NCBI RefSeq assembly: GCF_028712165.1
Contig: NZ_JAQTQR010000017.1
Span: 1-42,223, forward strand
DNA from: Sulfuricurvum sp.
GTDB taxonomy: Bacteria; Campylobacterota; Campylobacteria; Campylobacterales; Sulfurimonadaceae
Length of the DNA stretch: 42,223 nucleotides
Direction of reading: 5' to 3'
The translations under genes and the position numbers were made by a program. Under the pieces are notes generated by a model. It made no database searches. It was given only the letters and a program-made list of their open reading frames with translations, and was not told the origin of the DNA. Shown here piece by piece: positions 2,341 to 33,974 of this stretch. Positions within the stretch are counted from its first letter, which is position 1. The number at the start of each line of letters is the position of its first letter.

Positions 2341-2434
2341 CTAGGTAAAAAATGCCCCAGATGTGAAACTCGCTGAGGAAGGTGAGCTTTAAAAAAAGTA
2401 ATTGAGGTTATAGGTATCACCTGACCCCTTTATC

Positions 2435-3004
2435 TTAAGCTCCTGATATTTTACTTATAAAGTAACTTCTTATATTATCGAGCATATTATCATATTCTTG
2501 TTTCCTGTACCTATTATTATCAATGATATTTTTACGTTCAGCTGTTTGGCGACTTGGTATATTGGTTAGTTCACCTTTACCATGTGCAAATTCATCTAGT
2601 TGATATAAAGCTTCTTTTATTGTATTTAAATGTATATCATCAATAAACAAAGAACTTTTTTGTAAATAAAAGTTTGATTGATTGATTTGAGAACTAAAAT
2701 CTCTTACTTTTTGAACTGAATAGTCAGTCCATAAATCATCCATTGATTTTTTTAAATCACATAATGACACCCAAAGCTCACCATAAATATCAAATTGTTT
2801 TTCTGAATAACGAAGTAGTACAGTTTTTACACTTGCAACTTCTATCTCATATTTTCTTTTTATTTCTTCCAACTCTTTTGCATATTGGAATTTTTCTTTT
2901 TCTAATATTCTGCTTGCCCACACTTTACCAAGCCATGTTGAGAAGCCGAAAATAATAATTGTAGCTCCACCTGCACCTGTGATAATAGCCCAAAAAATAT
3001 CCAT
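2435..3004 (-). CDS. Membrane-anchored coiled-coil protein, cassette-type
   Basis: A 189-residue orphan. Residues 3-25 are hydrophobic (FWAIITGAGGATIIIFGFSTWL), giving one N-terminal membrane segment. A charged helical stretch follows (about 33-75, EKEKFQYAKELEEIKRKYEIE) that should form a coiled coil, and the rest is polar and mostly helical. The leader from the proposed attC crossover at about 3032 to the ATG is short and holds an AAAGGA ribosome-binding site, as in integron cassettes. Similar anchored coiled-coil proteins of unknown role are common in mobile and defence regions. No full attC-like hairpin follows the stop, only a GCTTAAG at the stop codon resembling a decayed R'' box. Function unknown. 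Confidence 0.65.
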   Translation of the reverse strand: MDIFWAIITGAGGATIIIFGFSTWLGKVWASRILEKEKFQYAKELEEIKRKYEIEVASVKTVLLRYSEKQFDIYGELWVSLCDLKKSMDDLWTDYSVQKVRDFSSQINQSNFYLQKSSLFIDDIHLNTIKEALYQLDEFAHGKGELTNIPSRQTAERKNIIDNNRYRKQEYDNMLDNIRSYFISKISGA

Positions 3005-3025: not shown

Positions 3026-3094
3026 ACTTAACGTTTAAGATGAGCGGATTAATTACCCGCAGGGTAATTTATTGGCTCCTCTGATTTGTTAGCG
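3026..3094 (-). other. attC-like recombination site 1
   Basis: On the gene (minus) strand this 69-base site begins with CGCTAAC, which contains the stop codon of the upstream gene, and ends with GTTAAGT, a perfect GTTRRRY box. Between them is an imperfect palindrome. AGATGAGC (3038-3045) pairs with GCTCCTCT (3075-3082) with one mismatch. The two arms are separated from the end boxes by 5-base spacers, and the apex is a perfect 8-bp stem AATTACCC/GGGTAATT with a GCA loop (3051-3069). This is the R''-L''-loop-L'-R' layout of integron attC sites. The next gene starts 22 bases after the crossover. Confidence 0.65.
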
Positions 3095-3790
3095 AAGCCA
3101 TTCTTCATCTTTGAAACCAATTTGTTTGAGCAAGAGTTTTCCTAATGAAGTGATTTCATATCCTTTGGTTTCCAATTCATTTGTGTTCCCACCTATTTTG
3201 ATACTGATATTTTTCTTTAGCAATCCTAAAGTAGCCAAATGTTCCTTGTAGCTATTTTGAATAGCTTCTTTATCAATATCTTCTTTACTTCCTCCCAACG
3301 TTGGGATTACTGTTTTCAAAACATTGCTATGTAATTGCCTGAATTCTTTGTCACTATTCATTAAAGGGTTCAAATAGAATCTTAGCCAGATAATCTCTAT
3401 ATCATTTAGCTCTTTTAAAAGGTTTAAAAGGTGTTTGTTTTCAAGATCAGAAATATAATTATTATCCAAACTGTTTTCTATCACTGATGATATATATTTG
3501 ATTCTATCATCAGATAATGCCCTTGAAGCTTGAAACATGCTTTCTTCCATAAGATCAACAAATTCCTCGCTTTTGAGCTTATTATCAAGTTGCTCTTTTT
3601 GAAATTGTTGAAGTTTTTTCTCAAGTTCAAGTACATACCTAGAAAGTCGATCAATTCTCTGATTTGGAACTATGACATCAAACATTTCTTGTATCATTGG
3701 ACCAACAAAAGGGATTGGACCTGCAATTGACTTTATTGTTGATAGTGTGATGTCAGTTTTATTATTTTTTTCAATATCATTTGGTTGCAT
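3089..3790 (-). CDS. Orphan cassette protein with conserved GPIPFVGP N-terminus
   Basis: A 233-residue soluble protein. Residues 20-45 (SIAGPIPFVGPMIQEMFDVIVPNQR) form an amphipathic, hydrophobic segment of a type I recall in several hypothetical proteins of defence or mobile regions. A coiled-coil helix follows at about 50-75 (LELEKKLQQFQKEQLDNKL). The C-terminal third (GLLKKN...YEITSLGKLLLKQIG) resembles a winged-helix end, where 'ITSLGKLLL' is typical. A 21-base leader with GAAGGA separates the ATG from the attC-like crossover on its upstream side, and the stop codon lies inside the next attC-like site. It is a compact one-gene cassette. Function unknown; a regulatory or abortive-infection role is only a guess. 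Confidence 0.65.
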   Translation of the reverse strand: MQPNDIEKNNKTDITLSTIKSIAGPIPFVGPMIQEMFDVIVPNQRIDRLSRYVLELEKKLQQFQKEQLDNKLKSEEFVDLMEESMFQASRALSDDRIKYISSVIENSLDNNYISDLENKHLLNLLKELNDIEIIWLRFYLNPLMNSDKEFRQLHSNVLKTVIPTLGGSKEDIDKEAIQNSYKEHLATLGLLKKNISIKIGGNTNELETKGYEITSLGKLLLKQIGFKDEEWLR

Positions 3791-3811
3791 TGTTCGTCCT
3801 TCTCATTTTAT

Positions 3812-3867
3812 AGCTAACGTTCGTCGTGAGTGACAGCTATGCTGTTCATTCCTCGTACTTGTTATGT
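3812..3867 (-). other. attC-like recombination site 2
   Basis: On the minus strand this 56-base site starts with ACATAAC, six bases after the stop of the ATPase gene, and ends with GTTAGCT. The centre folds as ACAGC-ATA-GCTGT, flanked by a bulged stem (GAGGAATGA against TCACTC) and a further CG pair. The start box ACATAAC is the exact complement of GTTATGT found at the 5' boundary of the same cassette (5503-5509). The 5' GTTAGC of the next cassette likewise pairs with CGCTAAC in site 1. Matching between a cassette's first bases and its own R'' box is a hallmark of integron cassettes. The hairpin is less regular than site 1. Confidence 0.55.
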
Positions 3868-3873
3868 TTTCTT

Positions 3874-5469
3874 TTAAGTTAATGTAGGTAAATAGCTTTG
3901 TAAAGCAGTCGTTATCTCTGTTTGCTTTGACCCTTTTAATAGCCTAACTAATAGTTTACTATACTCTCCAGTTGCAAGACCAAATATTTGAGATATTCTG
4001 TCAGGAAGAGATTTACGATTATATATTAATAGAAGTTGTTCTAAATTTCTTTCATCTATTGCAGTTTGATATAAAATTCTAGATTGTTCATATATATTGT
4101 GAATGTTAATTCTTCCCAAAGTTGTTGTAAGACCATCAGCTAAACCTTGCTCTGTATTTGCTTCTTTTGAAAAGGCGCCTAATTTATATTCAATAATCTT
4201 TTCAGCTTTTGATGAAACCTGATTATCAAACTCTGAGGTTAGTGCATTAACTAAAAAAGTAATAACTTCATCTACTTTTGCATTTGCATCAAGTTCTAAA
4301 TGAAGTGAAATAATCCTAAGAATTGGCTCAATACAAAAAAGATTTTCGATTTCGGCGACAGAAATAGTATATATATTTTGAGTTTCTAGTGCTGTTATCT
4401 CTGGCTGTTCTTTATAATCACTATCAATAATCCCATATGCACTTAAATGATGTAGCGAAACATTACCTCTAAATGCTTTAGTTGCTTCTATCACCTTATC
4501 ACAGCCACCTCTTGGAATAATATGAAAATCAGGGTACATTAATTGATATATTGTAGAATCTAACTTCCCATTTTCTCCCTCACAGAAAACGATATTTTTT
4601 CTATTACCTATGATTTCTAGCATCAAACTTTCAGGCAAATTTTCATCAACAGGAATATCTTCCCATATCCATTGATTATTACCGTGATATTCTTTTATCC
4701 AAATTTTGTTTGCATCGGTTCTAGATGATGCAAATTCTAAATCATGAGTAATATATATAAGTAATTTATTTTGTGTTTTAGACTCTATTTGATTCCAGAG
4801 TTTGTCCACTAATGACTTATGTAGATGTATTTCTGGTTCATCAATGATTATTACAGAGTTGTCAGGCAAACTAAGACACTGACCTATTAGATAGAGGACA
4901 ACTCTTTCTCCATCACTCATTTCTTGACCGTGATACTCAGATTGTCCTACTTTTTTTGCTATTACCTTTCCATCAAGAAATGATAATTCTCGATGAGGCA
5001 TTATTGAATTCCATAACTCAATGATTTCATCTATGGGAGCTTTAGGAACGTCTACATATTCTTGGCTTTCTCTAGCTTGGGCTGTGTAGTTTCTATCTCT
5101 TTCAGCTGATTTAGCAAATAACAATGAAAGAAGCTTGTCATAATCATTTAATAAAAAAGTTGCTGGTTTTTGACCCCATCTAGAGTTTGCTTTTTGCGTT
5201 ATATTAGCATGCTGATCTGATCTACCAAAAATCAATTCTTTTTCTGCTTGTTCTAAATTTTTAATCTGTGCAAAGTCAGGTATACTTAATACTCTTTGTG
5301 CGCTTAGTCTATGTACCGTAATTTGACTTTGAATTAATTCTTCAAGTCGTATACTAAATCGTGTTTTTCCTGCACCGTTTGCACCAACTATAACAATGTT
5401 GTTTTCAGTATGTAATGTTTCTTGGCCTGGAGTGCCATCTTTTTTAGGTAATACAATGTTATATGCCAT
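3874..5469 (-). CDS. AAA ATPase fused to DUF4435 (AriA/AriB-like, PARIS-type) defence protein
   Basis: A 531-residue protein with two parts. Residues 20-285 form an ABC/SMC-like AAA ATPase: Walker A GANGAGKT (29-36), signature SDGER (185-189), Walker B VIIIDEPE (206-213) and the switch His in YITHD (242). From about 292 a Toprim-like DUF4435 domain follows: CEGENGKLD (acidic Glu 297), a dkVIEA segment, GIIDSDY (Asp 349 and 351) and EIENLFC (373-379). This order matches the two subunits of the PARIS anti-phage system (AriA ATPase, AriB DUF4435) joined in one chain, a fused form I recall being described. OLD-family nucleases are the alternative. AT-rich, minus strand, leader begins at GTTATGT, attC-like site follows. 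Confidence 0.8.
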   Translation of the reverse strand: MAYNIVLPKKDGTPGQETLHTENNIVIVGANGAGKTRFSIRLEELIQSQITVHRLSAQRVLSIPDFAQIKNLEQAEKELIFGRSDQHANITQKANSRWGQKPATFLLNDYDKLLSLLFAKSAERDRNYTAQARESQEYVDVPKAPIDEIIELWNSIMPHRELSFLDGKVIAKKVGQSEYHGQEMSDGERVVLYLIGQCLSLPDNSVIIIDEPEIHLHKSLVDKLWNQIESKTQNKLLIYITHDLEFASSRTDANKIWIKEYHGNNQWIWEDIPVDENLPESLMLEIIGNRKNIVFCEGENGKLDSTIYQLMYPDFHIIPRGGCDKVIEATKAFRGNVSLHHLSAYGIIDSDYKEQPEITALETQNIYTISVAEIENLFCIEPILRIISLHLELDANAKVDEVITFLVNALTSEFDNQVSSKAEKIIEYKLGAFSKEANTEQGLADGLTTTLGRINIHNIYEQSRILYQTAIDERNLEQLLLIYNRKSLPDRISQIFGLATGEYSKLLVRLLKGSKQTEITTALQSYLPTLT

Positions 5470-5502
5470 AGCTGTGGTTTATCCTTTATTTATATCTTTG
5501 CA

Positions 5503-5509
5503 ACATAAC
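5503..5509 (-). other. Proposed cassette insertion junction (GTTATGT)
   Basis: On the minus strand the sequence is GTTATGT. Everything before the GTT (5507-5628) matches the flank at 33203-33369, and everything after it differs. The heptamer equals the complement of the R'' box (ACATAAC) of the attC-like site closing the same cassette at 3861-3867. Both facts point to G^TT as the crossover at which the ATPase cassette entered. Confidence 0.5.
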
Positions 5510-5628
5510 TATTTATTCATACCAAAAATGTACCATTTTGCCAGAATTTTACATATCAACATATTTTTAAACATTTTACGCTATTTTTCTTAAAATAATT
5601 TCCGCAAACACGTTAACGGCAGGTTCGA
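5507..5628 (-). repeat. Shared cassette-flank block, copy 1 (with MocR 3' remnant)
   Basis: Matches the block at 33203-33369 in the same orientation: both share TATTTATTCATACC, ACCATTTTGCCAGAA, ATCAACAT and TTTAAACATTTTACG in order, the other copy carrying an extra insertion of about 50 bases. The outer part (5576-5628) translates on the minus strand to IEPAVNVFAEIILRKIA plus stop, nearly the C-terminus of the intact MocR regulator at 12845 (IEPAVRAFAEIILRKML). The MocR remnant touches the amidotransferase stop codon. The block may be an attI-like or secondary insertion site; its exact nature is not determined. Confidence 0.65.
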
Positions 5629-6294
5629 TTAAACTTTATTCCACCAATCCAACAGATCGAACAGCGCTTTATTGGCTGAGGGAATGTGATACGCTTCAGC
5701 TCGTATCGTATCGGCATTATCAATAAACGGAGAATCAAAATCGAGATAAGCGCTATCGGCATTTAAGAGTCCGTTCATGCTCTCTTGAGTCGTCTCAAAA
5801 TGAAATTGTGTTGCGATGATACGTCCATCAGGGGTGGCGAATGCCTGATTTTTAAAGGCATCATTGGAGGCTATGCGTAGCGTCCCCTCGGGAAGATCGA
5901 ATGTATCGCCGTGCCAATGAAATACGCTCATTTTAGGTGCTAGATTTAGGGTGAGCGGATGAGCTGAAATCTCGATATCGTGCCATCCTGCTTCGCGTGT
6001 CTGCGATGAATAGACGGGTGCGCCCATAGCTGATGCGATGAGCTGCGCACCTAAACAGATACCGAAGGTTTTCCCTCCCTCACAAATGCGTCGGCGTAAG
6101 AACTCGATCTCGTTTTGGATGAAATCCAGATCATCGTACGCACTCATCGACCCGCCCAATACGATCAAAAGATCATCTGCTTCCAACGGTTCATTTTCCC
6201 AACATCGGATGATACGGTAAGGGATGTTTCGCATACGTGCCCACTCGCCGATTGCCGCTTCGTTTTCAAAAGGTACATGCTGCCAAATAGTCAT
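5629..6294 (-). CDS. Class I glutamine amidotransferase family protein
   Basis: A 221-residue stand-alone class I amidotransferase domain, like the glutaminase part of GMP synthase. The nucleophile elbow GICLGAQ places the catalytic Cys at 80, and QFHFE places His 165 and Glu 167. The oxyanion region LGGSMSAYDD is normal. Such proteins hydrolyse glutamine or gamma-glutamyl compounds; the acceptor is unknown because no synthase partner is fused or adjacent. A GGAGTAATT ribosome-binding site fits the ATG. It lies 22 bases after the AraC/MGMT/GNAT fusion gene and probably shares its transcript. The stop codon abuts a MocR 3' remnant. Confidence 0.85.
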   Translation of the reverse strand: MTIWQHVPFENEAAIGEWARMRNIPYRIIRCWENEPLEADDLLIVLGGSMSAYDDLDFIQNEIEFLRRRICEGGKTFGICLGAQLIASAMGAPVYSSQTREAGWHDIEISAHPLTLNLAPKMSVFHWHGDTFDLPEGTLRIASNDAFKNQAFATPDGRIIATQFHFETTQESMNGLLNADSAYLDFDSPFIDNADTIRAEAYHIPSANKALFDLLDWWNKV

Positions 6295-6316
6295 AATTAC
6301 TCCTGTAGTGTTTGTG

Positions 6317-7597
6317 TTAGAGTTGTATCCGAAAAGGGATCATCGCCGATTTTTCAAATCCCATCCCTTCGTAAAACCGATGAGCCGATAGATTGTCCGA
6401 ATCGGTCAGGAGGGTTATTCGTCGTATCCCTTTTTCTTTACTGCATGTCAGAACGTATTCGAGCAGGGCAGAACCGATATCCTCTCCGCGATGTTTCTCA
6501 TCGATGACCATATCTTCGAGCAGGGCGACTTTCTCCCCTAATGCCGTCGAGACGGTGTATAAAAGATTCACCATCCCCACAATCTCATCCTCTTTAGATA
6601 CAACGTATATCTCTCCGATAGTCTCATCCTCAATGATTTTTTTCAATCCTCTCACCTGATTTGCTTCATTAGGAGTAAACTCGATCTCTTTCGAAAAGAG
6701 TTGATGCAACAGCCCGCAAAGGCTCGGTATATCTTTGATGGTTGCCGTGCGGTAGGTGATAGGGCTTTCTTTGGATGCCGATTCGTAGGCGATGAGGATC
6801 TTTTTTCGCTCAATCCCCCATCGATAGCCGCTCATAGCACCGCTTTTGGCGATGACGCGATGGCAGGGGATGAGATAGCCGATGTGATTCTCTCCGATGG
6901 CGTTGGCGACCGCACGCACGGCTTTAGGTTTGTCGATGAAATTCGCGACATCCTGATAGGTCGTTATACCGCCGTTAGGGAGATTGATAAGCGCTTTCCA
7001 GACATTGATCTGTAGGTTCGTTCCCTTGACCAAGAGATTGTATTTTTTGTTTTTGATGAAAATATTTTCCAGATAGGTACGGGCTTTTAGATCATCATGT
7101 ACCAGATTGGCATTTTCCCACAGCTCACAAAACCGTTTATAGATCGACTCTTTGTTGTTGTCGATAAATCCCAGATAACAGACCCCTTTGTCGGTATAGG
7201 CGATCAATGCTTCACCGAAAGGGGTGAGTCCGAAACCGTAGGTGATGGTGACGTCTTTCCCTTTTTCGCGCCACTCTTTTGGGGTGACCCCTATGAGATT
7301 GACAAACAGTTCGTGCAGTCTGCTGGAACTGGATAACCCGATATCCAGAGTGCTGTCTAGCAGAGATTTGGACTCTTTGATATGCTCTTTGGCGTAGTTC
7401 AGCGTCACGGAGTGAAGAAATTGTTTGGGCGTTACACCGACATACTCTTTAAACACTCGCATAAAATGGTATTTGCTCATCCCTATGTTTCGAGCTATTT
7501 CATCGATGGAGGGCTGTTCTTTGAAATGGGTGTCGATATAGGTAATGGCTTTGGCAATAAGCTGATAATTCTGATTTAATATCTCGATATCTTGCAT
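6317..7597 (-). CDS. AraC-type regulator / O6-methylguanine methyltransferase / GNAT fusion
   Basis: A 426-residue three-domain protein. Residues about 10-110 are an AraC-type double helix-turn-helix (IDEIARNIGMSKYHFMRVFKEYVG). Residues about 120-275 form the Ada/Ogt-type methyltransferase with acceptor Cys 245 in IPCHRVI. Residues about 282-426 form a GNAT acetyltransferase (EDMVIDEKHRGEDIGSALLEYVL acetyl-CoA loop, DNLSAHRFYEGMGF). The N-terminal phosphotriester-repair domain of Ada is absent. The start at 7597 is preferred because AAAGGTG sits five bases upstream; an in-frame ATG at 7621 lies inside the glyA end and lacks such a site. It probably repairs and senses alkylated DNA while the GNAT domain acetylates an unknown target. 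Confidence 0.85.
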   Translation of the reverse strand: MQDIEILNQNYQLIAKAITYIDTHFKEQPSIDEIARNIGMSKYHFMRVFKEYVGVTPKQFLHSVTLNYAKEHIKESKSLLDSTLDIGLSSSSRLHELFVNLIGVTPKEWREKGKDVTITYGFGLTPFGEALIAYTDKGVCYLGFIDNNKESIYKRFCELWENANLVHDDLKARTYLENIFIKNKKYNLLVKGTNLQINVWKALINLPNGGITTYQDVANFIDKPKAVRAVANAIGENHIGYLIPCHRVIAKSGAMSGYRWGIERKKILIAYESASKESPITYRTATIKDIPSLCGLLHQLFSKEIEFTPNEANQVRGLKKIIEDETIGEIYVVSKEDEIVGMVNLLYTVSTALGEKVALLEDMVIDEKHRGEDIGSALLEYVLTCSKEKGIRRITLLTDSDNLSAHRFYEGMGFEKSAMIPFRIQL

Positions 7598-7607
7598 ACG
7601 ATCACCT

Positions 7608-8870
7608 TTAATAGGTTGCATTATTATAGACTTTAAAACCCTTTAAAAGAGTTTTGAGTTCCTCTTTTATCTGTGCATGAAGAGCAGTATTGTTGATGTC
7701 GTCTAAAACATCGCAGATTTTATGCGCGATAAGGTTAAACTCTTTTTCCTTCATCCCCAGTGTGCTCAACGCGGCAGAGCCTAGGCGTATACCTGAGGTG
7801 GACGAAGCGGGGCGGGGGTCGGATGGAATCGAATTTTTGTTGACTGTGATACCGGCATTTTCCAATGCCACACTTGCGTCTTCCCCGGAAAAATCTTTGT
7901 TAAGCAGTGATACGAGTACAAGATGATTATCGGTTCCGCCGCTGATGAGTTCATAACCCCGCTGGATCAATACATTGGCTAAAACGTTTGCATTGGCTTT
8001 GACTGCTTTGGCATACTCCTTCCATGAGGGGTGCAAAACTTCTCCAAATGCCACCGCTTTCGCAGCAATGACGTGTACCAAAGGTCCCCCTTGTATTCCG
8101 GGGAAGATGGCGCTGTCGATTTTTCTGGCGATCTCTTCGTTGTTCGTCATAATGATACCGCCGCGAGGGCCTCTGAGCGTTTTGTGGGTTGTGGAGGTGA
8201 CGACATCAGCGTAGGGGAACGGGCTCATGTGTTCTCCCGCCGCGACCAATCCGGCGATATGGGCGATATCGGCAAACAAAATCGCTCCGACGACATCGGC
8301 GATTTCTCGAAACCAGGCAAAATCAATTTCACGGGCATAGGCAGAAGCTCCGCACACGATAATTTTGGGTTGAACAATCTTTGCGATTTCCATGACATTA
8401 TCATAATCGATACGACCGTTAGACGCTACACCGTAAGTAAAGGAGTGATAGTTTTTCCCCGAAAAGTTAGGTTTGGCACCGTGGGTTAGATGTCCTCCGT
8501 GGCGTAAATCCATCCCCAATATTTTATCTCCGGCATTCAATAGTGCTGCATAGACGGCTCCGTTTGCCTGACTGCCCGAATGGGGCTGTACGTTCGCAAA
8601 GCGACAGTCGAAGATTTGGCATAATCGATCTTTTGCCAGTTGTTCTATCTGATCGGCAAATTGACATCCGCCGTAGTATCGTTTGTTCGGATACCCCTCT
8701 GCGTATTTGTTGGTAAAAATACTCCCCATCGCTTCCATAACAGCAGGTGAGGTAAAGTTCTCACTCGCGATCATCTCCAGATGTGTTGACTGTCGGTCGA
8801 ACTCATTTTCTATAATGGCGAAAACTTCCGAATCCGCAACCGATAAACTCTCTTCACGTATAAAACTCAT
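7608..8870 (-). CDS. glyA: Serine hydroxymethyltransferase
   Basis: A 420-residue, full-length PLP enzyme that interconverts serine and glycine with tetrahydrofolate in the cytoplasm. Visible family marks are EMIASENF near the N-terminus, [23 protein letters not shown], and the PLP-lysine motif [13 protein letters not shown]. The C-terminal [13 protein letters not shown] is slightly off the common GIRIGTPAxTTRG pattern, so this may be a divergent or second copy. The AraC/MGMT/GNAT gene starts at its end (overlap of a few bases to 11 bases apart depending on start), so they are probably co-transcribed. A divergent promoter region separates it from the FMN-binding gene at 9023. Confidence 0.93.
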
Positions 8871-11014: not shown

Positions 11015-11067
11015 GTCTCGCTTCCAAGCTCCAGCTTGGGAGTGTATATATTAGTCTGCATTCCCAA
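11015..11067 (+). repeat. 53-bp direct repeat, left copy
   Basis: Matches 12070-12122 at 50 of 53 positions. It holds a 7-bp inverted repeat, CCAAGCT-CC-AGCTTGG (11024-11039). Downstream sequence to about 11086 (CATTCCC...GAACGAGGGAA) resembles the widespread interspersed bacterial repeat with cores like TTCCCAAGCTCCAGCTTGGGAA. The pair brackets the ankyrin gene. Confidence 0.8.
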
Positions 11068-11169
11068 CAAGGACGTTGAACGAGGGAAAATTTGCTAATA
11101 AGTAAATAATCGTGTATAATTATAAATATTTAAATTAACTAAAAAATATATTATTATGTGAGATATAGT

Positions 11170-12069: not shown

Positions 12070-12122
12070 GTCTCGCTTCCAAGCTCCAGCTTGGGAGTGT
12101 ATATGCTAGTCTACATTCCCAA
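12070..12122 (+). repeat. 53-bp direct repeat, right copy
   Basis: Second copy of the repeat at 11015-11067, 1055 bases away in the same orientation, three mismatches. It contains the same CCAAGCT/AGCTTGG stem. It separates the ankyrin gene from the convergent PC4/TIGR02391 gene. Confidence 0.8.
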
Positions 12123-12155
12123 TGAGCACTTTATGTTCTCATTCACTTTTTTAAT

Positions 12156-12788
12156 TTAACAAGATGTTTCCGAAATTTCGGCATCTTCAATAATCTTTAA
12201 TAAATCGCTAGCAACAGCTATTCTATCAAACGCAGCTACAAAATCCAATTCAATATCGCGATGTGAACTTGAGTTTCGATAAAAACTAAATGCTCCTGTA
12301 ATGTAATTAAGCAAAGCACTTCTTTCTGATTTTGGTAGTTTATGATTCGTTAGAATACCATCATCAGGATTGAAAGCTTTTTTTAATAATCGTTCACCAA
12401 ACATGTCAGAGGATGTCCCGATTTTTTCCCGTGTAATGACTTCAATTGCTTTGAATGCTTGCATAACTGCACTATCAAACTCGCCACTTTGTAAAAGTGA
12501 GAAGCACTTTTTAACAATTAAAGGATGTATGTAACTTTCTGGCATTACAGCATATTTTTCTATAACCTTGCGAAACTCATGTTCAGGAATTCTAAAACCA
12601 GTTTTAGTTGGAAAAAATTGTTCTTCTCCTTCCTCATCATAACCACGTTGAAATTGTCTAATATCTATATGAGTAGTTGGACTCGCTTTGTATTTTATAC
12701 GTGAAAATCTAACTGACTTATAGCCAGAACTAGTTTCACCAATTACTTTTTGGAATTCAATTTTTGCTTCTATTTCTGTGTTTGCCAT
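12156..12788 (-). CDS. PC4-like domain fused to TIGR02391 (Ymh) domain
   Basis: A 210-residue protein. Residues about 25-80 (SGYKSVRFSRIKY...IDIRQFQRGYDEEGEEQFFPTKTGFRIPEHEF) match the pattern of PC4/p15-type single-strand DNA-binding domains (DIRxF...G...PTKxGxxL). Residues about 92-205 match the TIGR02391 domain: HPLIVKKCFSLLQSGEFDSAVMQAFKAIEV, FGERLLKKAFNP, and YITGAFSFYRNSSSHRD. That domain is HEPN-like in its helix pattern (RNxxxH) and is frequent in defence regions. The gene lies 57 bases beyond the stop of the MocR gene, in the same place relative to a MocR 3' end as the cassettes at 5469 and 33178. Role inferred as DNA-sensing or defence, not shown. Confidence 0.75.
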   Translation of the reverse strand: MANTEIEAKIEFQKVIGETSSGYKSVRFSRIKYKASPTTHIDIRQFQRGYDEEGEEQFFPTKTGFRIPEHEFRKVIEKYAVMPESYIHPLIVKKCFSLLQSGEFDSAVMQAFKAIEVITREKIGTSSDMFGERLLKKAFNPDDGILTNHKLPKSERSALLNYITGAFSFYRNSSSHRDIELDFVAAFDRIAVASDLLKIIEDAEISETSC

Positions 12789-12844
12789 TCTTTTTATTTC
12801 TTCGCAGTAACGTATTTTTGAGAGAGGTATAGAATTGATAGATT

Positions 12845-14215
12845 CTACAGCATTTTTCTTAAAATTATCTCCGCAAACGCTCTAACCGCAGGTTCGATCT
12901 CCTCCATCTCGAAACCCCCGAATCCCATCCGTATGGCATCCCATTCTCCCCCTGAGTAATCCTTGGCAAAATAGAGTTTGATTCCCGATTCTTCGGCTTT
13001 TTGTCGCAATAGATCGAGATCGATGTTTGATGTGAAGCGGATATTGATCGAGAGACCGCCCCCTTCACTAACGATAGTGATCGCATCGCCTAGATATTTG
13101 ATAAGGGATTGTTTCATCAGGTCGTGTTTTTTACGGTTTAGGTTTCGTACCCGTCGCAGATGACGTTCCCAATGACCCTCATTCATGAATAGCTCCAGCG
13201 TCTTCTGGGTCATGAGGCTGACACGCGAAAAGGTGCCGTGAAAGGAGCGGTATCGATCCATCAGATGACGAGGGAGTACGATGTATCCGACACGTAGAGC
13301 AGGGGAGAGGGCTTTAGCAAAGGTACCGAGGTAGATGACCCGCTCATTATTATCGAGTCCTTGGAGTGAGGGGATCGGGCGGGAGCGGTAGGTGAGTTCG
13401 CTGTCGTAGTCGTCTTCGATGATGTAGCCCTCATTCTCCTTTGCCCAGTTGAGAAGCCGTAGACGGTTGGCGACGGGCATTGCCGCACCTGTGGGGTATT
13501 GGTGGGAGGGGGTGATGTAGACGATGCGGGCATCGGAGGCACTCAGTTCATCAATTTTTAAACCGTTTTCATCGACTCCGATAGGGGTGATGTCGTAGTG
13601 ATGGTGGGTGAAAACTTTTCGGGCGATATGGTAGCCTGGATGCTCGATGGCAAAATGGGGGTGCGTCGGGCGGAGAATATCGGCGATCATCCCCATCGCA
13701 TCGATAAATGCCCCCGTAACAATAATCTCTGATGCGTCGCACCGCACGCCTCGCAGTTCGGTGAGATAACGCGCGATTTCGGTACGTAGTCCAAATTCCC
13801 CTTGCGGATTGGGATACACCCCCATATCGAGGGTTTTATCGATGGCACGGTTAAACAGCCGCTTCCAGAGTTTGAGCGGAAACACTTCTTTGGAGAGGCG
13901 GACGGGGTAAAAGTTGTAGCGGTAGGTGATGGGGGGTGTGTCGGCTGACTCTATCGCCGCAGCGTCACCCAGCGCAATAAAATCGGCATCCGCGACGTAA
14001 TAGCCGCTTTTGGGACGGCTTTCGATGTACCCTTCGGCGTAGAGCTGATTGTAGGCCGATTCGACGGTGTTTTTACTGATGCGGTACTCTTGGGAGATTT
14101 TGCGGATCGAGGGGAGTTTGCTCCCGATGGCAAGGGTAGTCGTGATGTCGTGTTTGAGTGCTTCATAGAGCTGGATGTGCAGAGGAGTTTCGGATGTCGC
14201 GTCGAGGAGATACAT
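12845..14215 (-). CDS. MocR/PdxR-family regulator (GntR HTH + aminotransferase)
   Basis: A 456-residue protein of usual family length. Residues 10-75 are a GntR winged helix (LPSIRKISQEYRISKNTVESAYNQLYAEGYIESRPKSGYYV). Residues 100-455 are a fold type I aminotransferase with PLP lysine 301 in GTFAKALSPALRVG and EDDYDSELTY. These regulators bind PLP and control vitamin B6 or amino-acid genes. It is divergent from a PNPOx-family gene at 14305, a classic MocR arrangement, so that operon is the likely target. Its last 17 codons recur as fragments at 5576-5628 and 33329-33369. Confidence 0.92.
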   Translation of the reverse strand: MYLLDATSETPLHIQLYEALKHDITTTLAIGSKLPSIRKISQEYRISKNTVESAYNQLYAEGYIESRPKSGYYVADADFIALGDAAAIESADTPPITYRYNFYPVRLSKEVFPLKLWKRLFNRAIDKTLDMGVYPNPQGEFGLRTEIARYLTELRGVRCDASEIIVTGAFIDAMGMIADILRPTHPHFAIEHPGYHIARKVFTHHHYDITPIGVDENGLKIDELSASDARIVYITPSHQYPTGAAMPVANRLRLLNWAKENEGYIIEDDYDSELTYRSRPIPSLQGLDNNERVIYLGTFAKALSPALRVGYIVLPRHLMDRYRSFHGTFSRVSLMTQKTLELFMNEGHWERHLRRVRNLNRKKHDLMKQSLIKYLGDAITIVSEGGGLSINIRFTSNIDLDLLRQKAEESGIKLYFAKDYSGGEWDAIRMGFGGFEMEEIEPAVRAFAEIILRKML

Positions 14216-25661: not shown

Positions 25662-26263
25662 AAGAAAATATGAGAGACATTTTGATTCAAACGATGTTTG
25701 AATCGCTTTATCACGAAGGGTACAACGCGAGCAATCTTATCGATCTGCTCAAAAAAGCCGGTACGTCCAAAGGGGGAATGTATCACTATTTCGGCTCCAA
25801 AAAAGAGCTGGCACTGGAATCGATGCGTATCGTCGGCGAAGGATTTATTGACCATTTTTGGGGCGGTTGTTTCGCTCGTCATGACGATCCGATCCGTGCA
25901 CTCGATGAGATACTAAAAGCACTTCCGAATGCGACGATCATAGGCGAATGTCCGTTTGATTTTAAACACGGATGTCCGTTGAATCATATGATTCAAGAGA
26001 TGAGCGCGTTGGATGAAGACTTTAAAATTCTCCTTGAATCAATCATGGATCGCTGGATTGCTCTTATCGCCGAAAACCTGAAAAAGGGACAAAATATTGG
26101 AGTTTGGGGAAAATCTTTTGAGCCGACTAGGATGGCGCAATTCATCGTTTCATCGATCGAGGGGACATTAACCCTGATGAAAGTAAAACAAGATATCCGT
26201 ATTTACGAAGAAAACACGGAATTGTTGTTACAAACTCTCAAAGTTTTGACGCAAAAGGGATAA
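25658..26263 (+). CDS. TetR-family regulator of the operon
   Basis: A 201-residue TetR-type repressor. The DNA-binding helices are YNASNLIDLLKKAGTSKGGMYHYFGSKKELAL (about 20-52). The C-terminal ligand domain has several cysteines (GGCFAR, IGECPFD, HGCPLN), which could sense redox state. It is the last gene of the operon starting at 23390 and probably represses it through operators at 23321 and 23357. Its final 66 codons recur at 27707-27906. Confidence 0.92.
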   Translation: MKENMRDILIQTMFESLYHEGYNASNLIDLLKKAGTSKGGMYHYFGSKKELALESMRIVGEGFIDHFWGGCFARHDDPIRALDEILKALPNATIIGECPFDFKHGCPLNHMIQEMSALDEDFKILLESIMDRWIALIAENLKKGQNIGVWGKSFEPTRMAQFIVSSIEGTLTLMKVKQDIRIYEENTELLLQTLKVLTQKG

Positions 26264-26366
26264 CGTGAAATCTGAGCGAGTTCTTATCGTCGGTGGCGGT
26301 ATAGCGGGGCTTATGTGTAAAAATCGGCTGGAGCATTTGGGGTACAGACCTGTACTTGTCGAAAAA
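26064..26366 (+). repeat. 303-bp direct repeat, left copy
   Basis: Covers the last third of the intact TetR gene and the first 34 codons of an FAD monooxygenase. The right copy at 27707-28009 aligns without gaps at an offset of 1643 bases, about 93 percent identical (some 21 mismatches, clustered at both ends, with a 100-base core free of differences). lysA lies between the copies. Confidence 0.9.
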
Positions 26367-27706: not shown

Positions 27707-27906
27707 TTATCGCCGAAAACCTGAAAAGGGGACAAAGCATCGGAGTTTTAGAAAAATCTTTTGATCCGGCTAGGATAGCACAATTCATCGTTTCATCGGT
27801 CGAGGGGACATTAACTCTGATGAAAGTAAAACAAGATATCCGTATTTACGAAGAAAACACGGAATTGTTGTTACAAACTCTCAAAGTTTTGACGCAAAAG
27901 GGATAA
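27707..27906 (+). pseudogene. Truncated TetR C-terminal fragment
   Basis: In frame with the last 66 codons of the TetR gene at 25658 (IAENLKRGQSIGVLEKSFDPARIAQFI ... TLKVLTQKG, stop at 27904). The DNA-binding part is missing, so no functional repressor can be made. An ATG at 27700 with GGAG upstream could still allow a 68-residue peptide. It belongs to the right copy of the 303-bp repeat. Confidence 0.85.
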
Positions 27907-28009
27907 TGTGAAATCTGAGCGAGTCCTGATCGTCGGAGGTGGTGTAGCGGGGCTTATGTGTAAAAATCGGCTGGAGCATTTGGGGTACAGACCTGTACTC
28001 GTGGAAAAA
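27707..28009 (+). repeat. 303-bp direct repeat, right copy
   Basis: Second copy of 26064-26366. It holds the TetR 3' fragment and the start of the intact FAD monooxygenase. The repeat begins 16 bases after the lysA stop codon. Confidence 0.9.
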
Positions 28010-30679: not shown

Positions 30680-30789
30680 TAGCTATTCTTATCGTCTTAT
30701 ATGTTGAATATTATACCTTAAAATCAATCTTCGGTATATTTATGGATACTACTAATATATTTATATTTAACGCCTGACCCGTATTTTGG

Positions 30790-30856
30790 ATATAACATTT
30801 GAATACGCCAATAAAGTACCACAGCTACTTTATTAGTGTGCTATGTTTTGTTACAT
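30790..30856 (-). other. attC-like recombination site 3
   Basis: On the minus strand this 67-base site starts with ATGTAAC, one base after the stop codon of the ATPase gene, and ends with GTTATAT. The centre is a perfect 9-bp stem AATAAAGTA/TACTTTATT (30810-30834) with a 7-base loop, and the outer ends pair as TAACA/TGTTA with a loosely pairing spacer. The end boxes differ from RYYYAAC and GTTRRRY at one position each. It occupies the same place after the gene as sites 1 and 2. Confidence 0.5.
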
Positions 30857-32467
30857 TTAGCCAGAAATATATTCTAAAAGTTCAGCATTAGCTGCATTTT
30901 TCATCAATCTAGCTCGCGTAGGACCAACATTGTAAATATTGTCAATTAAATTTTCTTCAGTACTATTATGTAATTCTTCAATTGTGTTAATTTCAGCTTC
31001 TTTTAGTTTTTCTTTTTGCCATGGAGTTAGTAGAACTAAAACATCAATTGGTTTACGTAGTAAAGACTTTAGAGACTCTCCATATTGTTCTTCATCATTT
31101 GATAAAAGAATTTGATCACTTCCAACATATGAACTATGATTTTTCCCAAATTCAGGAAACTTATTAAGGGCAAGTTTTTTATAAAACTCCGATGATTCCG
31201 CATGTGGATTAGCCTCCAATGAAATCATACAACCATATTTAATTTCATACCGGGAACCTAATTCAGATCTAGTTGCCCTTACTGAACTATCTATTTTTCT
31301 GATAATACCAGTATAAGTTAATAGTCTTAAGGCTTCTTTTACTGCCTCTGGAGAATCTTTATGAATCCAAAAATAGATAGTGGCTTCATTAATTCCCTTC
31401 TCCTTTCTAAGATTATTATATTCTTCAACTCTTGGTATGACTGTTTTTTCTAGAAAATCTCTTCCCCAATCAATTATGCCTCGGTGACCTTTATATTTTT
31501 CTCCAAGTTCTGTATGCTCTGCCCAAATCTGACCACGATAAAATGATTTGATTTCTGAGTTGACATTTGTCGTGTTAAACTTAGCTATGTTCTGAAGAGT
31601 TCTTAATAACATCCTTGGATTACCACCGGATGATAAAGCAAGAGTATTGAATAGTTCCTTTTGTCTATTGATTTCTTCACATAGCTTTTCGTCAGATTGT
31701 TTAACAACTATGTCTTCAAAGTATTGGAGATAATCAGAGTCAGAAATATTTCTCTCTAATTTTTTGTATACACAATCATGAGTTAATTCAAATGTGTCTC
31801 CAAAGTGTGTTACACCTGGGTAAATAGCAGCATTACATGATATGTATGGCGATCTTAGGTCTTTAAAAAGATTAAAGAATTGTCGTTGCTGTTCGGGTCT
31901 AAAAACGTGAGCAGCTTCGTCAAAAAAGAAAATTACTCTTTCAAGTGAATTTTCTTCGCAAATCGTTTGTATCGCTTCTTTTACATCTTCAATGTCAGGC
32001 AGTGTAGATATATCAATTTTAGAATTTCCCCTATATGAATCTTCAAACAAGTTTACTATTTCTTTGAGGCCAATCTGAACTTCATCTTCGGTTCCATTTG
32101 CATCATTGCTTAAAAGACTTGCTGTTAGGGAAGAAACAACGATTCCTTTCCTTCTTAGTTTGTTAAGTAGGTATTTTAGAGTTTTGGCCAACATCCAATG
32201 ATAGAATTGGAGATTGTCCTCTGTGCTTATTAACGAACTCATATTGAAGGGAACAAAGACACTGATATAAGATTCACTTTCAGCTTCTAATTCAAGTTCT
32301 GCAACTCGCATTAAAAAGGACTTTCCAGTACCTCGAGAACCCTCTAATAAACATGGTTCATTTGATTTGAGGGCAGTTAATATATTCCTATCAGCCTCAT
32401 TAATTACTGATAAATTCAAAATATCTGTCTGTTTGATACTTTCTGTTCTTAGATAAAATTCACTCAT
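30857..32467 (-). CDS. ORC/CDC6-like AAA ATPase with C-terminal helix-hairpin-helix-like region
   Basis: A 536-residue ATPase. Walker A EGSRGTGKS (42-50) and Walker B RVIFFFDEAAHVF (Asp 183, Glu 184) sit in an ORC/CDC6-like or STAND-like AAA module (about 15-310); GGNPRMLLRTLQNI resembles sensor 2. A winged-helix-like segment follows (EATIYFWIHKD...ALRLLTYTGIIRKI), and the last 60 residues (INTIEELHNSTEENLIDNIYNVGPTRARLMK) look like a helix-hairpin-helix. Single-copy ATPases like this pair with effectors in anti-phage systems. It follows the HEPN-like gene by 12 bases on the same strand. AT-rich, followed by an attC-like site. Confidence 0.75.
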   Translation of the reverse strand: MSEFYLRTESIKQTDILNLSVINEADRNILTALKSNEPCLLEGSRGTGKSFLMRVAELELEAESESYISVFVPFNMSSLISTEDNLQFYHWMLAKTLKYLLNKLRRKGIVVSSLTASLLSNDANGTEDEVQIGLKEIVNLFEDSYRGNSKIDISTLPDIEDVKEAIQTICEENSLERVIFFFDEAAHVFRPEQQRQFFNLFKDLRSPYISCNAAIYPGVTHFGDTFELTHDCVYKKLERNISDSDYLQYFEDIVVKQSDEKLCEEINRQKELFNTLALSSGGNPRMLLRTLQNIAKFNTTNVNSEIKSFYRGQIWAEHTELGEKYKGHRGIIDWGRDFLEKTVIPRVEEYNNLRKEKGINEATIYFWIHKDSPEAVKEALRLLTYTGIIRKIDSSVRATRSELGSRYEIKYGCMISLEANPHAESSEFYKKLALNKFPEFGKNHSSYVGSDQILLSNDEEQYGESLKSLLRKPIDVLVLLTPWQKEKLKEAEINTIEELHNSTEENLIDNIYNVGPTRARLMKNAANAELLEYISG

Positions 32468-32479
32468 TTTTAATATTCC

Positions 32480-33178
32480 TTATGATTGGCCAAACAATTT
32501 TCTAATAGGCTCAACTTCCTTAAATTCTTCTGGGATAAACTGTAGTAATTCACGTGTAGACTCATCGAATTGCTTGGCATACCTGCATATTGCAGCATAT
32601 AAAATCACTTTTGCTACAGACGTAAAATATTCACAATACAACTCGAATAGTGTGGCGTTATAGCCTAATTTAAGTCCACTGTTTTCCCAAGTTTCGTTAT
32701 TCCCATGAACGTATTCAGAAAGTTTTCTATAAACAGCAATGGCTTTTTTTCTATACTTAATACTATATTCTGAACATTCGCTAAAGAATGCCTTCGCAAA
32801 TCGTTGTGACAAGACACCGTTGTCTTCATCAACTAAGCTTGACCATTTAATATCAGAGCGGCCATCTAACCATTCATGTAACTCCAATTTATTTGCGGAG
32901 AAATACATAGATGCTAGTCCCATCTCAAAAGCCAGCCTCAATGACGAAAAAGCTTGCCTATACAACCCAAGAACTACATTTAGGTTTGCTGACTCCAGTT
33001 GCGCACTAACTGTTATAAGAATTTCTTTTTCTTGTTGATCAAGTAGGCACTCAGCGTATTCGTATACACATGATGATAGATGATGTAGTGTCCCGAGTTT
33101 TTCTTTCTCAGAAATCGTTTCAGTGAATATCGTCTGTGATTCGACATTTAATCTATTGAAGTAATCTTGTATATCCAT
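32480..33178 (-). CDS. HEPN-like protein, probable effector partner of the ATPase
   Basis: A 232-residue helical protein. Residues 60-95 (LYRQAFSSLRLAFEMGLASMYFSANKLELHEWLDG) and 147-160 (AVYRKLSEYVHGNNETW) show the pattern I recall for HEPN-type helical bundles; R151 and H158 form R-x6-H, within the R-x4-6-H spacing of HEPN RNases. The annotation rests on this motif and not on a profile. It would be the toxic or RNA-cleaving half of a two-gene module with the adjacent ATPase. The leader has AAAAGG, and the block before the GTT at 33203 is shared with the other cassette array. Confidence 0.55.
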   Translation of the reverse strand: MDIQDYFNRLNVESQTIFTETISEKEKLGTLHHLSSCVYEYAECLLDQQEKEILITVSAQLESANLNVVLGLYRQAFSSLRLAFEMGLASMYFSANKLELHEWLDGRSDIKWSSLVDEDNGVLSQRFAKAFFSECSEYSIKYRKKAIAVYRKLSEYVHGNNETWENSGLKLGYNATLFELYCEYFTSVAKVILYAAICRYAKQFDESTRELLQFIPEEFKEVEPIRKLFGQS

Positions 33179-33202
33179 GAGAATTAATTAATCCTTTTTT
33201 TT

Positions 33203-33369
33203 AACTATTTATTCATACCCAAAATATACCATTTTGCCAGAAATCCACAAGAAAATAGGACATTCTAAATGTCCTATTATTAGAAATATCCAAGCAGAAC
33301 CTTACAAATCAACATTTTTTTAAACATTTTACGTTGTTATTCTTAAAATTAGCTCCGCAAACCCTTTAA
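33203..33369 (-). repeat. Shared cassette-flank block, copy 2 (with MocR 3' remnant)
   Basis: Same orientation and order as 5507-5628: TATTTATTCATACC, ACCATTTTGCCAGAA, ATCAACAT, TTTAAACATTTTACG. It stops matching just at the GTT (minus strand) where the HEPN/ATPase cassette begins. The part 33329-33369 translates to VKGFAELILRITT plus stop, a third MocR C-terminal fragment. About 50 bases (33248-33300), including an 11-bp hairpin, are inserted relative to copy 1. Confidence 0.65.
33254..33278. other. 11-bp hairpin in the flank block, copy 2
   Basis: AATAGGACATT-CTA-AATGTCCTATT, a perfect 11-bp stem with a 3-base loop and no T-run directly after it. It lies in the part of copy 2 that is absent from copy 1. 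It could be a small mobile insertion, or a protein or RNA hairpin; nothing more can be said. Confidence 0.5.
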
Positions 33370-33511
33370 CGCGAGCCAAGGCGAAAAAAGAGAAGCATTT
33401 TCCTAATTGCGTTCGAAAACACAGAAGAAAAATGATGAACTAAAAGGACTGGGATACACCGATGTTCATCGTCGAAGCCGTTGCGATTTCTGAGGCAATA
33501 GCCCTAGCGAG
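33369..33511 (+). pseudogene. Decayed 3' end of an AhpD-like gene
   Basis: The stretch from about 33441 matches the 3' end of the gene at 22728: it reads GLGYTDV, then after a 2-base deletion IVEAVAI, then loses about 56 bases and rejoins at GGCAATAGCCCTAG, which is the old stop and its 3' flank. The upstream part (33369-33440) still resembles the same family (EKREAF, KTQKKND) but contains a stop codon. The end overlaps the last codons of the ogt gene. Confidence 0.6.
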
Positions 33512-33974
33512 AGCTTTGGTCGCTCTCCAGCTGCAATAAAAACTCTTTTCTCCATAGCCCCCCGCTGTATCCTCCGAGCCCTCCACCCGTTGCGATAACG
33601 CGATGGCAAGGGATGAGAATCGCGATGGGATTTTTTCCGTTGGCGTTTGCGACGGCTCGAACGGCTTTAGGATTGCCGAATTGTTGCGCTTCTTGAGCAT
33701 AGGAGATTGTTTGTCCGTAAGGGATTGAACGAAGAGTTTCCCAAACTTTTTGTTGAAATGCTGTCCCTTCCGCTGCTAAAGGGAGTGTAAAAGTTTGTCG
33801 TTTTCCATCAAAGTATTCGTGCAGTTCCTCTTCTAAACGGAGCAAAAGGGAATGGCGTGAATTGTGAACAATATAAGCATCATAGGTAAAGTGAAGAGAG
33901 GTGAGGACTTCTCCGTTTGTCATGGCGATCATTTCCCCAATCGGGGTTTTTATCAGACGGGTTTTATATATCAT
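33504..33974 (-). CDS. ogt: Methylated-DNA--protein-cysteine methyltransferase
   Basis: A 156-residue Ogt-type DNA repair protein that removes O6-methyl groups from guanine by transfer to itself. The acceptor site ILIPCHRVIATGGGLGGYSGG is intact, and the DNA-binding segment FQQKVWETLRSIPYGQTISYAQEA is normal. Its last residues (SDQSSR) overlap the AhpD-like remnant, so the C-terminus may have been altered locally. It is divergent from the TagA gene at 34091. Confidence 0.93.
   Translation of the reverse strand: MIYKTRLIKTPIGEMIAMTNGEVLTSLHFTYDAYIVHNSRHSLLLRLEEELHEYFDGKRQTFTLPLAAEGTAFQQKVWETLRSIPYGQTISYAQEAQQFGNPKAVRAVANANGKNPIAILIPCHRVIATGGGLGGYSGGLWRKEFLLQLESDQSSR

What the first reader, a model, noticed from the sequence alone, without database searches (positions are those of the whole stretch)
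3026..3867. Two attC-like sites bracket compact defence-type cassettes with no integrase nearby
Sites at 3026-3094 and 3812-3867 have end boxes and paired arms like integron attC sites, each directly after a minus-strand gene whose stop touches or lies in the first box. The gene between them has a 21-base leader, the next one 22 bases, both with a ribosome-binding site, which is the normal cassette layout. The 5' boundary heptamer of each cassette complements the R'' box of its own attC (GTTATGT/ACATAAC exactly, GTTAGC/GCTAAC). Integron cassettes are not something I associate with Campylobacterota. This would be an integrase-less cluster carrying a PARIS-like gene.
Basis: partly seen in the sequence, partly recalled or inferred. 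Interest (0 to 1): 0.85.

Follow-up and report, generated by a model that had tools for sequence, protein, structure and literature searches.

The report
Integron cassettes without an integrase
Two small gene arrays in this bacterial genome, one carrying the PARIS virus-defence gene, are true integron cassette arrays that still sit on their original insertion sites although the enzyme that inserts cassettes was not found in any of 41 genomes of the genus, which suggests that such 'orphan' landing sites may go on exchanging defence genes without a resident integrase.

Summary
No other part of the window scores convincingly. Each cassette run starts at a conserved sequence ending GAATAAATAG^TTA (5509 and 33205, minus). 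This motif lies between intI and the first cassette in all 19 intI loci readable there, so it is the native attI. The window therefore holds two attI-headed, integrase-less arrays: PARIS(AriAB)-attC-233 aa-attC-189 aa, and a two-gene cassette-attC. No integron integrase exceeds threshold in this genome or in 41 genomes of the genus. A neighbouring genus shows intI deletions that leave attI behind. At one orthologous attI, four species carry four different inserts, two of them with known or candidate defence genes. One cassette gene is 92.7% identical between two species whose core DNA is about 79% identical, at different attI sites. What is new is the multi-copy orphan attI and the signs of cassette turnover without a resident integrase.

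The parts
5507..5606 (-). attI copy 1 (orphan): ends GGTATGAATAAATAG^TTA; crossover G at 5509; also holds the spacer block TTTTAAGAAAAATAGCGTAAAATG
   Evidence: Core AATAAATAGTT occurs exactly twice in the window (shuffle mean 0.065) and at the array head in 17 of 19 intI loci, the other two reading ATTAAATAGTT; orthologous copies in three other species of the genus.
5607..5629 (-). remnant of the 3' end of a mocR gene fused to attI copy 1
   Evidence: Homologous to the C-terminal codons of the intact mocR at 12845-14215; the same junction is seen in other species.
3818..5508 (-). cassette 1 (PARIS)
   Evidence: Starts TTATGT, the exact complement of its own attC first box ACATAAC.
3874..5469 (-). 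ariAB, single-gene PARIS defence protein, 531 aa
   Evidence: PADLOC AriAB 507 bits; Pfam AAA_21 and DUF4435; PDB AriA chains.
3812..3867 (-). attC of cassette 1
   Evidence: Model R1 32.9 bits, E 4e-5; weight matrix 36.9.
3032..3817 (-). cassette 2
   Evidence: Start TTAGCT against own first box CGCTAAC, 6 of 7.
3089..3790 (-). 233-aa protein of unknown family
   Evidence: No Pfam, PADLOC or NCBIfam family above cut-off; weak PHROG match of unknown function.
3026..3094 (-). attC of cassette 2
   Evidence: Model R1 67.5 bits, E 6e-13.
2435..3004 (-). 189-aa membrane-anchored protein; last gene of the array, without an attC
   Evidence: A 61% identical homologue is the first gene behind an attI in another species of the genus (G344).
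2404..2428 (-). 3' boundary GGGGTCAGGTGATACCTATAACCTC
   Evidence: The same sequence ends the inserts in G358, G351 and others.
33203..33371 (-). attI copy 2 (orphan), crossover G at 33205, with the inner GGACATTTAGAATGTCC dyad
   Evidence: 95% identical to copy 1 over the last 41 bp and 84% over 77 bp upstream.
30796..33204 (-). two-gene cassette of the second array
   Evidence: Bounded by attI copy 2 and the attC at 30790-30856; its start matches its attC box at 2 of 4 variable positions.
32480..33178 (-). 232-aa protein, unknown
   Evidence: No Pfam family above cut-off.
30857..32467 (-). 536-aa ORC/CDC6-like AAA ATPase
   Evidence: PF24389 34 bits, above cut-off; stop directly abuts the attC.
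   Evidence: Model R1 36.8 bits, E 5e-6; weight matrix 24.3 against shuffle maximum 19.9.

Best explanation
The window carries two orphan-attI integron arrays. An ancestral chromosomal integron (intI-attI-cassettes) lost its integrase gene by deletion; the attI with its flanking promoter-like sequence survived and was copied to several loci. Circular cassettes, each a promoterless gene plus its attC, were inserted at attI by IntI-type recombination between G and TT, so each cassette begins with the complement of its own attC box. Array 1 holds PARIS, a 233-aa gene and a 189-aa gene that has lost its attC; array 2 holds a two-gene ATPase cassette. Shown: attC identity, attI identity by position and sequence, cassette boundary signature, absence of intI from the held genome and genus sample, intI deletion in a neighbouring genus, different inserts at one orthologous attI. 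Inferred: that intI was lost before the genus radiated, that some cassettes arrived afterwards, that the first gene is read from promoter sequence in the attI block, and that PARIS acts by its described route (AriA ATPase holds the AriB nuclease until a phage trigger frees it).
For: attC. attI. No intI. intI deletions at orthologous loci: G322 (complete genome) has intI next to this attI, while in G191 the attI spacer runs straight into the last codons of intI; two further loci keep only the ends of intI. Cassette boundary signature: 25 integrase-less pairs match 3.28 of 4 variable positions against 2.08 for shuffled partners (maximum of 2,000 shuffles 2.68), like 47 pairs in intI arrays (3.36). 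Four species, one attI locus, four different inserts. Phylum cross-table: 25 of 26 IntI genomes have attC, 34 of 272 without IntI do (Fisher P 4e-19). A 388-aa cassette gene is 92.7% identical over 1,061 bp between G000 and G351 at non-orthologous attI loci, against a core mean of 79.0% (range 72.7-85.8).
Against: The sequence-only attI model trained on intI loci scores window copy 1 weakly (10.7 bits, E 0.04) and misses copy 2, so the attI call rests on the exact core, its position and the homologous upstream block. The 189-aa gene has no attC. The genome is a 130-contig draft and intI could sit in a gap or on an unassembled plasmid, although completeness is 99.9%. No recombination was assayed.
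Confidence: 0.88

Rival explanations
1. Dead relic: the arrays are leftovers of old integrons; species differ only because each lost different cassettes from a common ancestral array, and nothing has been inserted since intI was lost.
For: intI is deleted in several relatives; attC and attI decay is visible (G358 attI decayed; attC of G364 interrupted by a repeat; the last gene of array 1 lacks an attC).
Against: The four orthologous inserts share no cassette; a cassette gene shared by G000 and G351 is closer than core DNA and sits at different attI loci; box complementarity is as good as in intI arrays; no AriAB closer than 38% was seen in 298 other genomes of the order.
Confidence: 0.35
2. 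Cassettes are still gained at orphan attI sites by an integrase supplied in trans, from a visiting plasmid or another strain, or by an unrecognised recombinase.
For: Turnover evidence as above; cassettes of this attC family ride on Aliarcobacter and Sulfurospirillum plasmids, two of them headed by attI themselves.
Against: Those two plasmids carry no close IntI either. No IntI at E<=1e-25 in 41 genomes. Nothing was assayed.
Confidence: 0.4
3. Block exchange by homologous recombination: conserved attI flanks on one side and the GGGGTCAGGTGATACC boundary on the other let whole cassette blocks be swapped after DNA uptake, without any integrase.
For: Both edges are conserved across loci and species; in G351 a cassette gene is joined directly to the boundary without its attC.
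Against: Does not by itself explain the exact cassette-start/attC-box match at the attI junction; cassettes would have to be built elsewhere by IntI.
Confidence: 0.25
4. The sites are chance palindromes or terminators in intergenic DNA.
For: Simple descriptors and folding alone do not separate them from shuffles.
Against: Sequence-plus-structure model and weight matrix place them far outside the null; 238 of 272 genomes without IntI have no hit at all.
Confidence: 0.02

Closest known systems
[quoted passage not shown]
   Same: At least two attC sites, cassettes in the same orientation, no intI in the genome; published for this phylum (PMC10295459) and proposed to be degraded integrons (PMC9024848).
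   Different: Here the cluster keeps a recognisable attI at its head, in several copies per genome, and shows signs of content turnover; IntegronFinder 2 does not detect attI outside class 1 (PMC9024848).
Sedentary chromosomal integron with attI and Pc
   Same: attI core, native attC family, defence-rich cassettes.
   Different: No intI; one to three cassettes only; several platforms per genome.
Xanthomonas integrons with inactivated intI and off-site CALINs (PMC12444791)
   Same: Progressive integrase loss with cassettes left behind at conserved loci.
   Different: The abstract and passages read there do not describe orphan attI copies; here attI itself is duplicated and retained.
PARIS (AriAB fused form)
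   Same: AAA/ABC-type ATPase joined to a DUF4435 TOPRIM domain.
   Different: Here it is an integron cassette; the nearest relatives found are Bacteroidota (59-78% identity), with only distant ones in its own order (38% or less).

Membership tests
attC recombination site | Outer boxes RYYYAAC and GTTRRRY and paired arms, recognised by a model of native attC | tested here: met
   Model R1, window excluded from training: 67.5, 36.8 and 32.9 bits. The first box of cassette 2 begins CG rather than RY.
attC recombination site | Cassette start complements the first box of its own attC | tested here: met
   PARIS 4 of 4 variable positions, 233-aa cassette 3 of 4; the second array only 2 of 4.
attC recombination site | Recombination by IntI on the folded bottom strand | not testable with these tools
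   Needs a cassette excision or insertion assay.
CALIN | Two or more attC sites close together | tested here: met
   Two sites 0.8 kb apart.
CALIN | No integron integrase nearby | tested here: met
   None over cut-off in the whole held genome and none at E<=1e-25 in 41 genus genomes.
Integron attI | Located between intI and the first cassette, crossover at G^TT | tested here: inconclusive
   Position at the array head and GAATAAATAG^TTA core as in all intI loci examined; but intI is gone here and the sequence-only attI model scores weakly.
Complete integron | intI gene present | tested here: not met
PARIS | AriA-type ATPase plus AriB DUF4435/TOPRIM | tested here: met
   PADLOC AriAB 507 bits over residues 6-530; DUF4435 70 bits.
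PARIS | Trigger-dependent abortive defence | not testable with these tools
   Needs expression and phage challenge.

The most novel reading that the evidence does not exclude
In this genus the integron works as an integrase-free network: several orphan attI sites per genome go on receiving defence cassettes, with recombination supplied from outside the cell line or by an unrecognised enzyme, so CALINs are active recipients rather than fossils.
Probability: 0.35. Interest if true: 0.8.

Novelty: new variant of a known kind. Interest (0 to 1): 0.6.

Why it matters
CALINs are about as numerous as complete integrons in sequenced genomes (2,961 against 2,760 in PMC9024848) and are usually read as decayed integrons. 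A phylum-wide attI motif allows orphan attI sites to be found, which the standard tool does not do outside class 1, and makes it directly testable whether integrase-less arrays are dead or still fed with cassettes. It also places a PARIS defence gene on integron cassettes, with its closest relatives in another phylum.

Tried and rejected
A hand-made box-and-arm descriptor did not separate the sites from shuffles and was dropped for models trained on native sites. Rfam has no family that hits the window. DNA folding supports only one of the two sites. The attI model R2, built from intI loci alone, is too weak for the diverged orphan copies. I first took the upstream element for a random repeat or a promoter; comparison with intI loci showed it to be attI. 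The idea that the two 284-285 aa tyrosine recombinases of the genome could be the integrase was set aside: relatives with and without IntI carry the same kind, and so do control genomes. Viral contigs and plasmids gave no informative relatives of the 233-aa and 189-aa genes, and phage records gave no match to the attC consensus.

Full report
WHAT IS THERE. Read on the minus strand, the region 5509->2429 is: attI core, PARIS gene, attC, 233-aa gene, attC, 189-aa gene, boundary sequence. The large gene is a fused PARIS AriAB: PADLOC AriAB 507 bits over nearly the whole protein, with AAA_21 and DUF4435 domains in Pfam and a sequence match to solved AriA chains. The other two genes have no Pfam or PADLOC family above cut-off.

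TESTING THE SITES. Rfam has no hit in the window, and a descriptor of my own was no better than shuffles. I therefore searched the phylum for integron integrase: TIGR02249 exceeds its cut-off in 21 of 298 genomes, and 26 have a match at E<=1e-40. I took 44 attC sites from loci beside those integrases and built a covariance model without any sequence from the window. It finds 3026-3094 (67.5 bits), 30790-30856 (36.8) and 3812-3867 (32.9), all minus strand, and nothing else below E 1. A simple weight matrix from the same native sites ranks the same three places first (42.0 for 3026-3094, 36.9 for 3812-3867, 24.3 for 30790-30856); the next best is 6.6, and the best hits of 300 shuffled windows average 9.0 with a maximum of 19.9. 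Across 298 genomes the model hits 25 of the 26 with IntI and 34 of the 272 without; 238 have no hit. The consensus attC matches three of 72,556 plasmids, all from Campylobacterota (Aliarcobacter, Sulfurospirillum), which gives the site family a named taxonomic home.

THE HEAD OF EACH ARRAY IS AN attI. Both cassette runs of the window start just after GGTATGAATAAATAG^TTA. In all 19 intI loci with sequence, the region between intI and the first cassette ends the same way: AATAAATAGTT in 17, ATTAAATAGTT in two, with a TATAAT-like box about 20 bases upstream in most. In the window the 11-base core occurs exactly twice, at the two array heads, against 0.065 expected from shuffles. The upstream block (TTTTAAGAAAAA..., AAATATGTC..., an inverted GGACA/TGTCC) is shared between orphan copies and resembles intI loci. 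A sequence-only attI model from intI loci scores copy 1 weakly and misses copy 2, which I count against an over-strict claim.

NO INTEGRASE, AND HOW IT WENT. The held genome (2.72 Mb, 130 contigs, 99.9% complete) has no IntI over cut-off; the best hits are ordinary tyrosine recombinases, of a kind also present in relatives and in control genomes. None of 41 genomes of the genus has IntI even at E<=1e-25, yet 13 of 41 have attC and 11 of 41 have the attI tail (23 matches, 0 for the reversed control pattern). In a neighbouring genus the process is visible base by base: complete genome G322 carries intact intI beside this attI; at the orthologous locus of G191 the attI spacer runs straight into the last codons of intI, with colinear flanks (91.8% and 77%) and an array that shares only attC sites; a second G191 locus and its G328 orthologue keep only the ends of intI. 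In the window's genus the attI copies instead begin with the 3' end of a mocR gene, the same junction at different loci and in different species. The simplest reading is one old intI deletion beside mocR followed by duplication of the platform; this is inference.

CASSETTES HAVE BEEN EXCHANGED. Each true cassette starts with the complement of the first box of its own attC. Over 25 integrase-less pairs the match is 3.28 of 4 variable positions (14 exact), against 2.08 for shuffled partners; intI-bearing arrays give 3.36. The attI beside the GATase gene is orthologous in four species: G000 holds PARIS and two further genes; G364 a 78-aa cassette with attC and a 312-aa gene; G358 a 642-aa candidate defence gene (PDC-S49, 493 bits); G342 a PIN-domain gene and another. 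Both flanks are conserved in three of the four. A 388-aa cassette gene in G000 (contig 31) and G351 (contig 36) is 92.7% identical over 1,061 bp at non-orthologous attI loci, while eight core segments of the two species average 79.0% (72.7-85.8). The 189-aa gene of array 1 has a 61% homologue as first gene behind an attI in G344, at the locus that corresponds to array 2 of the window. PARIS has 59-78% identical relatives in Bacteroidota but none above 38% among 298 other genomes of the order; a 48% relative, cut by a contig end, is the next cassette after an attC in G340, whose intI is broken.

MECHANISM. Most likely IntI inserted these cassettes at attI, then or later acting from outside the genome, and the arrays are now held without a resident integrase. 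Whether gain continues, by integrase in trans or by homologous replacement between the conserved edges (attI block on one side, GGGGTCAGGTGATACC on the other), or has stopped, cannot be decided from single genomes. Two Aliarcobacter plasmids carry attI-headed cassettes and no close IntI; their best matches are generic tyrosine recombinases at about 30% identity over the longer alignments (up to 49% over 39 residues), while IntI proteins of the phylum are 68-87% identical to one another. Plasmids are thus a plausible vehicle for cassettes but not a shown source of integrase.

WHAT IS KNOWN. Campylobacterota are on the list of phyla with integrons (PMC8618304), and CALIN and In0 elements were tabulated for Sulfurovum and Sulfurimonas (PMC10295459). 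CALINs are about as common as integrons and are proposed to be degraded ones; attI sites are poorly described outside class 1 and not detected by the standard tool (PMC9024848). Integrase loss with retained cassettes is described in Xanthomonas (PMC12444791). Defence genes in integron cassettes are an established theme (cited there). I found no description of multi-copy orphan attI in the papers searched; subscription papers were not available, so this is not proof of novelty.

VERDICT. The unexpected part is that attI itself is kept, several times per genome, in a genus without a detected integrase, with contents that differ between species. New variant of a known kind; interest 0.6.

Noticed in passing
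2404-2428 and 30760-30780 (minus): Recurrent sequence GGGGTCAGGTGATACC or GGGTCAGGCGTTAAAT directly at the 3' end of cassette arrays, here and in several species; it looks like the far boundary of the platform or a REP-like element.
   Followed up: partly
11015-11077 and 12070-12132: A repeat (GTCTCGCTTCCAAGCTCCAGCTTGGGAGTGTATAT...) that also interrupts an attC hairpin in G364 (L196 about 7728-7797) and follows the C31 array of this genome.
   Followed up: partly
12835-12898 and 12156-12788 (minus): The 3' end of mocR carries the same block as the orphan attI copies but no attI core, and is followed by an AT-rich Hypoth_Ymh gene: possibly a third, decayed platform.
   Followed up: partly
L126 and L122 around 6000-7750: In Gillisia limnaea and another Bacteroidota genome the AriAB gene lies between GTTGGGTAGC and GCTACCCAAC...GTT, which looks like an integron cassette of a different attC type (by eye).
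   Followed up: partly
L226 (pM830MA) and L228 (pCNAC48): Aliarcobacter cryaerophilus plasmids with attI-headed cassettes and no close IntI; pCNAC48 also carries many predicted resistance genes elsewhere.
   Followed up: yes
L029, L031, L036, L042, L043, L214: GC-rich hairpin units (GGGGGCGCGGG...CCCGCGCCCCCGTTA, some 135 bp long) without an ORF, several lying directly behind attI: candidate ORF-less cassettes.
   Followed up: no
26064-26363 and 27707-28006: A 300-bp direct repeat at 93% identity inside the window.
   Followed up: no
6800-6936 and 33543-33679: Two DNA-alkylation-repair methyltransferase genes (Ada-like and Ogt-like) lie near the two orphan attI copies; their shared stretch is 72% identical.
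   Followed up: no
L160 8921-9869 (G000 contig 93): A further attC pair in this genome whose cassette encodes an HNH, mREase_IV-like protein.
   Followed up: partly
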